Assembly (NCBI GenBank): GCA_944323735.1
Contig: CALUTO010000008.1
Coordinates: 1 to 64,000 of the forward strand
Direction of reading: 5' to 3'
Length of the DNA: 64,000 nucleotides
DNA from: Candidatus Gastranaerophilales bacterium
GTDB taxonomy: Bacteria > Cyanobacteriota > Vampirovibrionia > Gastranaerophilales > Gastranaerophilaceae
The notes below the pieces were generated by a model. The model made no database searches, was not told the origin of the DNA, and was given only the letters and a program-made list of their open reading frames with translations. Positions 659-54,049 of the stretch are shown here, in pieces. Positions within the stretch are counted from its first letter, which is position 1. Each line of letters begins with the position of its first letter. Made by a program: the position numbers and the translations under genes.

Positions 659-2548
659 ATGAGAAGATGGAGTTCCCCGTTTATTGCTGTACTGGTTTTA
701 TTTTCTGCATTGTGCTTACCTGCCGGATGTGAAGAAGCTGCAAAAACAGATATAAAATCAGAGAACGCAAAGGCTCAGGAAATCAAAGCCCAAAATCCTT
801 CCGGTCAAAAAAATTCAGCAAAAACAACAGAAACAACTGCTTCTGATGATAAAAAAGACGAAAAAGCTCCAAAAAGCCACACAACGGACAAAACAGCAGT
901 TAAAACAGAAAAAAATACACCAGCCGGCGACAAAACAGAAAACACTCCGGAACCGGAAACAAAATCAGCTTCACAACCGCAAAAACAGGAAACTGACAAA
1001 AAAGATACGGAAATAAAAGAAATTTCTTTTTCAGTACCTGCTCCGGAACGGGAAACATCCATATTAAACCATAGAAATGCTATCAAATATGCAAATGAAA
1101 AACTTGCAGCAAGTGCAAAAAAATTAACGGAAATGCAATGGTATCCGGCATTTCATGCGGCACCTCCGGCAAATTTAATGGACAGCCCCAACGGACTCGC
1201 ATATTTTAACAACAAATATCATCTTTTTTACCAGCATAATCCTTTTTCAACAGATTCCGGCAGATTATACTGGGGGCATGCGGTAAGCGAAGATATGGTT
1301 CACTGGGAAAATTATCCCGTGGCACTTGCACCGACAGACAATTACGACAGGGACGGAGTATACCCCGGAAGCGCAATTGAAAAAGACGGATTAATATATC
1401 TTTTATATTCAGGAAATTATGACAGAAATTCCCGCAAAGCACAGATGGTAAATCTTGCAATGAGTAAAGACGGAATTAATTTTGTTAAATCAGCAAACAA
1501 TCCTGTTCTCCTGAATCCGCCGGCAATAAGAGGTCTCAATGTTTCTAAAGAATTGTTCCGGGATCCGTTTGTATGGAAACATGAAAATTCTTACTATGCT
1601 CTCATAGGAACGCAGAATATTCCGACAAAAGACGGAATGGTGCTCATATATGAATCAAACGATTTAACAAACTGGAAATTCAAAGGGATTACCGCAATCG
1701 GACATAAGGGTGAAATCGGATATATGTGGGATGCACCCGGACTTGTTAATATTGACGGAATGGATGTTCTTTTAATTTCTCCCCAGGGTATAAAACCTTC
1801 CGGGAAAAACTTTCTTAATAAAAACCAGTCAGGTTGGTTTGTCGGAAATATTGATTACAACACAGGAAAATTCAAACAAACCGGAGGTTTTGGACTGTTT
1901 GACAGAGGGTTTGATTTTTATTCTCCGCAGGTAATGAAGAACAAAGACGGTCGGGTGGTCATCATAGGAAAGCTGGGCATGGACGAAACACCAAATCCGG
2001 AAAAAGCTGAAGGATGGTCAGGCATGATGAGTATTCCCAGAGAAATAAAAATTGTAAACAAAAAAGTTGTTACCCTGCCTGTGGAAGAAATGAAAAACTT
2101 AAGAGGTCAAACTATTTCTATAAAAGATAAAACAATTGAAGGAGAAAAGAGCTTTTTACAGATAAACGGAGATGCATATGAACTGGAACTCGAAGCAGAT
2201 TTAAAAGACGCAAAAAGATTTTCTCTGGCACTGAGAAATTCAGAAACCCAAAAGACAGTTTTGACTTATGACAGGGAAAAAAGTGCATTGCTTCTTAACA
2301 GAGACAAATCCGGTGCTGATTTAAGCGGAGAACGAGAGGCCTCTCTGGCATTGGATAACAATATTTTAAAACTCCGTATATTTGTAGACAAATCATCTGT
2401 AGAAATATTTGCAGGCAGCGGCGAAGTTGTCATGAGCAGCAGAATTTATCCTGACAAAAATTCTACGGGAATAAAATTTATTTCTGACGGGAAAACAGTC
2501 ATAAAAAATCTAAACTTTTACAAACTAAAATCAATACACACAAAATAA
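659..2548 (+). CDS. GH32-fold lipoprotein with altered catalytic motifs
   Basis: A 629-residue lipoprotein: signal peptide with lipobox LPAGC (Cys about 24), then a Lys/Thr/Glu-rich linker to about residue 125, then a glycoside hydrolase 32 five-bladed propeller and a C-terminal beta-sandwich. GH32 landmarks are clear: YHLFYQHNPF after the first motif, FRDPF (Arg301-Asp302), GYMW before the third motif, GFDFYSPQ and SIPRE. In active GH32 enzymes the nucleophile is the Asp of WMNDPNG; here the segment reads LMDSPNG, with Ser176 in that place and Asp175 one residue early. The acid/base Glu of the EC motif is replaced: WDAP (Asp358-Ala359). Only the RDP motif is intact. Active relatives cleave fructans or sucrose; this one may bind fructosyl sugars at the cell surface without normal hydrolysis, or use shifted residues. 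The start ATG follows AAGGAG. No sugar transporter or fructokinase lies nearby. Confidence 0.88.
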   Translation: MRRWSSPFIAVLVLFSALCLPAGCEEAAKTDIKSENAKAQEIKAQNPSGQKNSAKTTETTASDDKKDEKAPKSHTTDKTAVKTEKNTPAGDKTENTPEPETKSASQPQKQETDKKDTEIKEISFSVPAPERETSILNHRNAIKYANEKLAASAKKLTEMQWYPAFHAAPPANLMDSPNGLAYFNNKYHLFYQHNPFSTDSGRLYWGHAVSEDMVHWENYPVALAPTDNYDRDGVYPGSAIEKDGLIYLLYSGNYDRNSRKAQMVNLAMSKDGINFVKSANNPVLLNPPAIRGLNVSKELFRDPFVWKHENSYYALIGTQNIPTKDGMVLIYESNDLTNWKFKGITAIGHKGEIGYMWDAPGLVNIDGMDVLLISPQGIKPSGKNFLNKNQSGWFVGNIDYNTGKFKQTGGFGLFDRGFDFYSPQVMKNKDGRVVIIGKLGMDETPNPEKAEGWSGMMSIPREIKIVNKKVVTLPVEEMKNLRGQTISIKDKTIEGEKSFLQINGDAYELELEADLKDAKRFSLALRNSETQKTVLTYDREKSALLLNRDKSGADLSGEREASLALDNNILKLRIFVDKSSVEIFAGSGEVVMSSRIYPDKNSTGIKFISDGKTVIKNLNFYKLKSIHTK

Positions 2549-10541: not shown

Positions 10542-10793
10542 CTAAATCTCGACAACTGTTTCGGGATTTTTTGCAGCTGTTTTGTATGCTGTTAAAATAG
10601 TATCTAACGGCACACTAAAACTCGAAATTCCGCTGCCGCCGGTTCCGCCTGTATTTGTAAACTGAATATCCGTAGTATTTTTGTCCTGTTCACTCTGTGC
10701 AAGCTCTGCAATGTACTGAGTATTTATTGCAGCATTGTCTTTTTTTATATAAATTAGTCCTTTAAAATTTATACTGTTAATCGAATCAATCAT
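10542..10793 (-). CDS. small lineage-type protein with INFKG N-terminus, 83 aa
   Basis: A short protein beginning MIDSINSINFKG, then a Gln/Thr/Gly-rich middle (TGGTGGSG) and a helical C-terminus. It is not recognised outside the pattern of small proteins in this window that share an I/V-N-rich start with an F-K/G/S motif. The start ATG at 10793 has GGAG seven bases upstream on the minus strand, which argues against a longer frame beginning at 10850. It converges on the end of the creD-like gene, 16 bases away. It has no membrane segment; function unknown. Confidence 0.55.
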   Translation of the reverse strand: MIDSINSINFKGLIYIKKDNAAINTQYIAELAQSEQDKNTTDIQFTNTGGTGGSGISSFSVPLDTILTAYKTAAKNPETVVEI

Positions 10794-10992
10794 TATCTCT
10801 CTCCGTCTATTTCTATTTTTTATGCGAATATCGCTTTGTACAAACATCAAAACATGAAAAAAATAATTTTTGCTATTATTTTATAAAACAGTTGAATTAA
10901 AATTAAAAGCTATTTATATTTCTTCACAAAATGCTTACGGACAAACTATTTCCTTTTATAATAAAATGTATATTTTATCCGGAGCTGGAAAT

Positions 10993-53671: not shown

Positions 53672-54049
53672 TTATACAGGTCTTTCTAATCTTTCTTGAA
53701 GCATTTTATTTTGTTCTTCTATAACTTTTTTGGCTTTGTGTTTGTAATACAAATTCATAACAGAATCTATTGCAACAAATCCAAGACCGAGAACAGCAGC
53801 ATTTGCACCTATGGATTTCAAGGACTGCTGCGGAGCTTTTGTGACATAATTATATCCGGCTCTTACTGCGTCAAAAACCATACTGACCACTGCACCAAAA
53901 ACGAACTGCCCGCCTATTCTTTTCAATCTTTTTTTGACAGGACTTTCGGGTTTTTCATAATATGAAAGACCAAAAGACTGCTTTTTTGCAGATGTTTGTT
54001 TGTTGTTATAGTTAGTAGAAACATTTACTGATGAAACTGATTGTACCAT
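53672..54049 (-). CDS. small lineage-type membrane protein, 125 aa
   Basis: Begins MVQSVSSVNVSTNYNNKQ and reaches SFGLSYYE near residue 26, the N-terminal segment style shared by several small proteins here. A basic stretch (KKRLKR) is followed by two hydrophobic segments (about 46-66 and 82-105) and a charged helical tail. In plan it matches the protein at 8885-9175. The ATG at 54049 starts near GGGG on the minus strand (TGGGGTAAAAAATGG). No known family; likely a membrane protein with a specific N-terminal signal or tether. Confidence 0.6.
   Translation of the reverse strand: MVQSVSSVNVSTNYNNKQTSAKKQSFGLSYYEKPESPVKKRLKRIGGQFVFGAVVSMVFDAVRAGYNYVTKAPQQSLKSIGANAAVLGLGFVAIDSVMNLYYKHKAKKVIEEQNKMLQERLERPV

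What the first reader, a model, noticed from the sequence alone, without database searches (positions are those of the whole stretch)
1141..1740. GH32-fold lipoprotein lacking two of three catalytic residues
In the segment that should read WMNDPNG the sequence is LMDSPNG, with Ser176 in the nucleophile place and an Asp one residue early. The EC motif acid/base Glu is replaced by Asp358-Ala359. The RDP motif and the rest of the GH32 core (HNPF, GFDFYSPQ, SIPRE) are kept, and the frame is intact with a good ribosome site. A kept fold with lost catalysis suggests a surface-bound fructan- or sucrose-binding protein, or a new mechanism using the shifted Asp. Established: GH32 needs the three acidic residues. 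The function is inference.
Basis: partly seen in the sequence, partly recalled or inferred. Interest (0 to 1): 0.68.

Follow-up and report, generated by a model that had tools for sequence, protein, structure and literature searches.

The report
Secreted, catalytically dead invertase-fold protein
A gut bacterium (a non-photosynthetic relative of cyanobacteria) and nearly all of its relatives that carry this gene keep a secreted protein shaped like a sugar-cutting enzyme whose cutting residues were lost, apparently several times over, while selection kept the rest of the protein almost unchanged, so it must do a job other than cutting sugar.

Summary
The intact 629-aa ORF (659-2548, +) is a full GH32 protein (Pfam E 7e-85; AlphaFold pLDDT 93.8; TM 0.93 to a solved β-fructofuranosidase). 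Ser176 replaces the nucleophile Asp and Asp358 the acid/base Glu; the RDP Asp is kept. It is not an isolated oddity. It is one of a single-copy secreted family in Gastranaerophilales (4/4 species of its genus, 21/23 of a sister genus, two of a third). The nucleophile is missing in all 22 compared non-redundant orthologues and in the third genus; only two species keep the whole triad. The intact ones nest inside the dead ones (AU p = 0.0006/0.0003 against one dead clade), so loss was probably repeated. Cores are under strong purifying selection (dN/dS 0.04-0.15), yet pocket sites move from among the slowest positions in active enzymes to average-to-fastest here. The 'shifted Asp175' is unique to this species, which argues against a new nucleophile; the lipobox is not canonical. 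Most likely it is a non-hydrolytic pseudoenzyme whose conserved role lies outside the catalytic pocket. Retained fructan binding is possible but weakly supported. Plant 'defective invertases', the closest known kind, keep their triad.

The parts
659..2548 (+). Complete ORF of a secreted GH32-fold pseudoenzyme, 629 aa
659..730 (+). Sec-type signal peptide region (residues 1-24); non-canonical lipobox LPAGC with Pro at -3
   Evidence: sequence; pattern test and congener comparison
731..1069 (+). Low-complexity K/E/T/P/S-rich linker (about residues 25-137), present in the genus, absent in the sister genus
   Evidence: weak Pfam mucin-like match below cut-off
1154..2074 (+). GH32 N-terminal five-bladed propeller domain (residues 166-472)
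   Evidence: Pfam PF00251 E=7e-85; AF2 + Foldseek
1181..1186 (+). D175-S176 in place of Asn-Asp (nucleophile) of WMNDPNG
1364..1366 (+). P236 in place of the pocket Ser of the SGS motif (congeners keep Ser)
1559..1564 (+). R301-D302 of the RDP motif, kept
1730..1735 (+). D358-A359 in place of Glu-Cys (acid/base motif)
2087..2521 (+). GH32 C-terminal beta-sandwich domain (residues 477-621)
   Evidence: Pfam PF08244 E=2.1e-35

Best explanation
The protein is a secreted, non-hydrolytic pseudoenzyme of the GH32 (ScrB/invertase) fold. Shown: the fold is intact, the nucleophile and acid/base residues are replaced, the gene is single-copy without a GH32 paralogue, the core is under strong purifying selection, and the same pocket is eroded across the family. 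Inferred: a beta-fructosidase gene entered this bacterial family, its product took on a fold-dependent extracellular role (binding a glycan or protein partner through surfaces other than the catalytic pocket, or acting as a structural part of the envelope), and catalysis then became dispensable and was lost several times. In the window species the pocket has decayed further than in its congeners, so canonical fructose binding is probably weak or gone.
For: Nucleophile kept in 0 of 22 compared orthologues. Of 62 columns invariant in seven GH32 sequences with the complete motifs, the 9 named pocket columns are kept in 0-19 of 22 orthologues while the other 53 have a median of 22/22 (Mann-Whitney p = 3e-5). 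Pocket sites move from the 0-13th rate percentile (33rd for W173) in active enzymes to the 39-100th here (M174 alone is unchanged). Core dN/dS is 0.04-0.15 for pairs that both lack the nucleophile. AU test rejects one dead clade. pLDDT 93.8 and TM 0.93 to 7vco. Only GH32 in its genome; one GH32 per carrier genome. No PTS EIIC in 12 genomes. Neighbours are not sugar genes and change between genera.
Against: No activity or binding has been measured. dS is near saturation in most pairs, so dN/dS is approximate (three closer pairs give 0.04-0.12). The RDP Asp, and a carboxylate at the acid/base site (D here, E in congeners), remain, which could mean that part of the pocket still has a use. No novel conserved surface was pinned down. 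The active reference panel is small (seven sequences), and two of them belong to the same family.
Confidence: 0.62

Rival explanations
1. Fructan or sucrose lectin: the nucleophile loss itself turned the enzyme into a binder that captures sugar in the old catalytic pocket without cutting it.
For: GH32 mutants with one catalytic residue removed bind sugar in crystals (7bwc D63A with sucrose, 2qqw D23A with sucrose, 3u14 D50A with inulin, 9tdv D81A with raffinose; titles). The E221A mutant of endo-levanase BT1760 is about 4,000-fold less active but binds levan strongly (PMC6560043). Congeners L004 and L005 keep Q, W, S, R, D and E of the pocket.
Against: In the window protein N175, D176, S236, E358, C359, W173 and W438 have all changed; in most of the sister genus Q, R, S or the RDP Asp have changed too. 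Pocket sites evolve at or above the average rate instead of being conserved. No transporter or fructose-use genes nearby and no PTS EIIC.
Confidence: 0.2
2. An active enzyme with altered chemistry: the shifted Asp175 (or D302 with D358) supports hydrolysis or transfer on an unusual substrate.
For: Three acidic residues (D175, D302, D358) still surround the pocket in the window protein.
Against: D175 is unique to this species; congeners have Ser at that place and Ser or Asn at 176. D175 aligns with the Asn, between the invariant H166 and P177 and without gaps. Orthologues show many different residue sets at the site.
Confidence: 0.05
3. Decaying gene: an acquired invertase that is useless to the bacterium and on its way to becoming a pseudogene.
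For: Catalytic residues are lost in almost every lineage, and two of 23 sister-genus genomes lack the gene. The window species has the most pocket changes among its congeners.
Against: Open frames in 4/4 and 21/23 genomes; dN/dS of 0.04-0.15 over synonymous divergence up to saturation; 30 of 62 active-invariant columns fully kept in all 22 orthologues.
Confidence: 0.05
4. Non-enzymatic regulator of an active GH32, as proposed for the tobacco defective invertase Nin88.
For: Precedent for dead GH32 proteins in plants (PMC3713406).
Against: No other GH32 protein in its own genome or any relative that carries it; any active partner would have to come from another organism.
Confidence: 0.04

Closest known systems
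Bacterial sucrose-6-phosphate hydrolase / beta-fructofuranosidase (GH32, TIGR01322 ScrB family; solved example 7vco, Frischella perrara)
   Same: Fold, domain order, N-terminal helix, most structural motifs; TM 0.93, 33% identity; NCBIfam ScrB model above cut-off
   Different: Secreted, not beside sugar transport genes, lacks nucleophile and acid/base Glu
Plant defective invertases (e.g. tobacco Nin88)
   Same: GH32 proteins of the extracellular space that no longer cut sucrose
   Different: Plant ones are reported never to be affected in the catalytic triad, only in a neighbouring Asp/Lys pair and Trp residues, and coexist with active invertases (PMC3713406); here the triad itself is lost and there is no active paralogue
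Engineered dead GH32 enzymes (BT1760 E221A; nucleophile mutants of Bombyx, Arabidopsis and yeast enzymes)
   Same: Single catalytic losses in the same positions
   Different: Laboratory mutants with otherwise perfect pockets that still bind sugar; here the whole pocket has drifted

Membership tests
GH32 family (sequence and fold) | GH32N propeller plus GH32C sandwich above curated cut-offs | tested here: met
   PF00251 285.7 bits (cut-off 22.1), PF08244 122.5 bits (cut-off 21.9); Foldseek top hits all GH32
GH32 family (enzyme) | Asp nucleophile in WMNDPNG | tested here: not met
   S176; alignment to solved enzymes and orthologues
GH32 family (enzyme) | Asp transition-state stabiliser in RDP | tested here: met
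   R301-D302-P303
GH32 family (enzyme) | Glu acid/base in the EC motif | tested here: not met
   D358-A359; congeners keep Glu
GH32 family (enzyme) | Hydrolysis or transfer of beta-fructosyl groups | not testable with these tools
   needs assay
[quoted passage not shown]
   Triad is lost here; description in PMC3713406
Bacterial lipoprotein | Lipobox of PS51257 type before Cys+1 | tested here: not met
Surface glycan-binding protein of a polysaccharide utilisation locus | Encoded beside transport and sugar-degradation genes | tested here: not met
   Neighbours are a small unknown ORF, an unknown coiled-coil ORF, ComEC, prephenate dehydrogenase; none sugar-related

The most novel reading that the evidence does not exclude
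A family in which a secreted single-copy beta-fructosidase has been converted repeatedly and independently into a non-enzymatic binding or scaffold protein, with the old catalytic pocket under diversifying selection for new ligands and no active paralogue ever present.
Probability: 0.25. Interest if true: 0.72.

Novelty: new variant of a known kind. Interest (0 to 1): 0.52.

Why it matters
Pseudoenzymes are usually studied as duplicates beside an active copy. Here the only copy lost catalysis, apparently several times, yet stayed under strong purifying selection, and two living relatives still have the complete triad. That gives matched active/dead pairs (for example L006 and L013, dN 0.06) for testing what the protein does besides catalysis. 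It also warns that GH32 calls by Pfam or NCBIfam (this protein passes the ScrB cut-off) should not be read as fructan or sucrose use in Gastranaerophilales.

Tried and rejected
Shifted-nucleophile idea: rejected by congeners. Lipoprotein: lipobox test failed. Co-transcribed partner: a 412-aa Pfam-less gene, probably a membrane protein by reading its sequence, lies directly upstream in most of the sister genus, but its homologues occur in genomes without the GH32 gene and elsewhere in the window's genome, so it is not a specific partner. Regulator of an active paralogue: no second GH32 found. Fructose PTS: none in 12 genomes. One dead clade: rejected. Literature searches for a bacterial GH32 pseudoenzyme or GH32 in Melainabacteria returned no match among the papers listed. 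Promoter/terminator scan gave nothing above chance. Site-level positive selection was not tested because dS is saturated.

Full report
Observation. The ORF at 659-2548 on the + strand is complete (629 aa, ATG), with an AGGAG ribosome-site-like sequence just upstream. Pfam finds the GH32 N-terminal propeller (E 7e-85) and C-terminal sandwich (2.1e-35); the NCBIfam ScrB model passes its cut-off (422.8 against 356.4 bits). The alignment to solved enzymes is ungapped from H166 to P177 and puts S176 on the nucleophile and D175 on the Asn before it. AlphaFold2 with a 25-sequence alignment gives pLDDT 93.8 and pTM 0.92, and Foldseek's best solved match is a Frischella perrara beta-fructofuranosidase, TM 0.93, 33% identity.

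Family. The protein belongs to a set of secreted GH32 proteins of Candidatus Gastranaerophilales (record titles). It is found in 4/4 genomes of the window's genus, 21/23 of a sister genus and two of a third, in only three of 41 genera of the family searched, and always as the single GH32 copy. Elsewhere in the class the Pfam search gave only weak partial matches. Closest outside relatives found are Clostridia enzymes at about 40% identity, so transfer from such a source is plausible but not shown.

Catalytic residues. I use 'dead' for proteins without the Asp nucleophile; this is inferred from sequence, not measured. In 22 compared orthologues of the two main genera the nucleophile is Asp in none. 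It is Ser, Asn, Glu, Lys, His, Thr, Gly or Leu. The RDP Asp is kept in 17, the acid/base Glu in 15, the other 7 having Asp. The third genus has Leu or Val at the nucleophile and Ser or Tyr in RDP. Two sister-genus species (L006/L014 and L029) have the complete WMNDPNG, RDP and EC motifs and all nine pocket residues compared. The window's Asp175 and Asp358 are not shared by its three congeners, which have S175, S or N176 and E358. So loss of the nucleophile is genus-wide, while the Glu-to-Asp change is later and private; the His-bearing sister subclade made the same Glu-to-Asp change independently.

Repeated loss. On the tree the triad-bearing L006 sits inside a 100/99-supported group with three nucleophile-lacking proteins. 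Forcing all nucleophile-lacking rows, or those of the sister genus, into one clade is rejected (AU p = 0.0006 and 0.0003). If loss is irreversible, reading the tree gives six losses on the best tree and at least four on its well-supported branches. The alternative, two regains, costs three changes in simple parsimony but would have to restore the whole motif set each time. I consider it unlikely, but it is not formally excluded.

Selection. Core dN/dS (Nei-Gojobori) is 0.04-0.15 for pairs that both lack the nucleophile. dS is high in most pairs, so values are approximate; the three closer pairs (L013-L020, L007-L035, and active-dead L006-L013) give 0.12, 0.04 and 0.09. Of 62 columns invariant in seven GH32 sequences with the complete motifs, the nine pocket columns are kept in 0-19 of 22 orthologues, against a median of 22/22 for the other 53 (p = 3e-5). 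Site rates tell the same story: of 17 pocket and motif positions examined, 15 move from the 0-13th percentile in the reference enzymes to the 39-100th here, W173 from the 33rd to the 99th, and only M174 is unchanged. The fold is held while the pocket is released. This is either relaxation or diversification; saturated dS prevents a decision.

Location and context. The N-terminus looks like a Sec signal. The Cys at residue 24 does not sit in a standard lipobox (Pro at -3) and congeners lack it, so surface anchoring by lipid is doubtful. A K/E/T/P/S-rich linker of about 110 residues is specific to the genus. Neighbours (ComEC, prephenate dehydrogenase and small unknown ORFs) have no sugar link and differ between genera. 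The gene directly upstream in most of the sister genus is found in genomes without the GH32 gene and elsewhere in the window's genome, so it is not a specific partner. No PTS EIIC was found in 12 genomes.

Mechanism. A GH32 without its nucleophile or acid/base should not hydrolyse at useful rates: the BT1760 E221A mutant lost about 4,000-fold (PMC6560043). Such mutants still bind sugar (crystal titles; levan retardation), so a pocket lectin is a fair idea for the congeners with near-complete pockets. But the window protein has also changed N175, S236, C359, W173 and W438, and the family does not conserve the pocket. I therefore put most weight on a fold-dependent extracellular role through other surfaces (inference), with fructan binding as the main rival.

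Known kinds. Plant defective invertases are the nearest concept, but they are reported never to be affected in the triad (PMC3713406). My searches of the open literature returned no listed paper on a bacterial GH32 pseudoenzyme family or on GH32 in Melainabacteria; subscription journals are largely not covered. I rate it a new variant of a known kind (pseudoenzyme of a known fold).

Noticed in passing
window 10545-10850 (-), 53675-54049 (-); L013:7768-8361; L015:1-1422; L022:7621-9756; L083:12123-12716: Several proteins of otherwise different kinds in this bacterial group carry a short N-terminal [IV]-[SN]-F-[KG]-[GA]-like motif (e.g. NVSFGA, SINFKG, TSFKRA). In a quick count it was about three times as common in N-terminal 45-mers as in internal ones (12/245 against 19/1221), partly orthologues, so weak evidence.
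   Followed up: partly
L022:7621-9756: A 712-aa protein with a weak GH77 (4-alpha-glucanotransferase) match carries an odd N-terminal extension and lies directly downstream of the GH32 gene in a congener only.
   Followed up: no
L020:5920-7497: A close dead relative has an extra pocket change (W205 to R) absent in L013, its near twin, showing that pocket turnover continues recently.
   Followed up: partly
L019, L021, L043, L044 and L007, L008, L034, L038, L040, L042 (sister-genus subclades): Several orthologues replace the RDP Arg with Lys or Asn, and another subclade uniformly has His at the nucleophile and Asp at the acid/base site, a constant set that might mark a distinct ligand.
   Followed up: no
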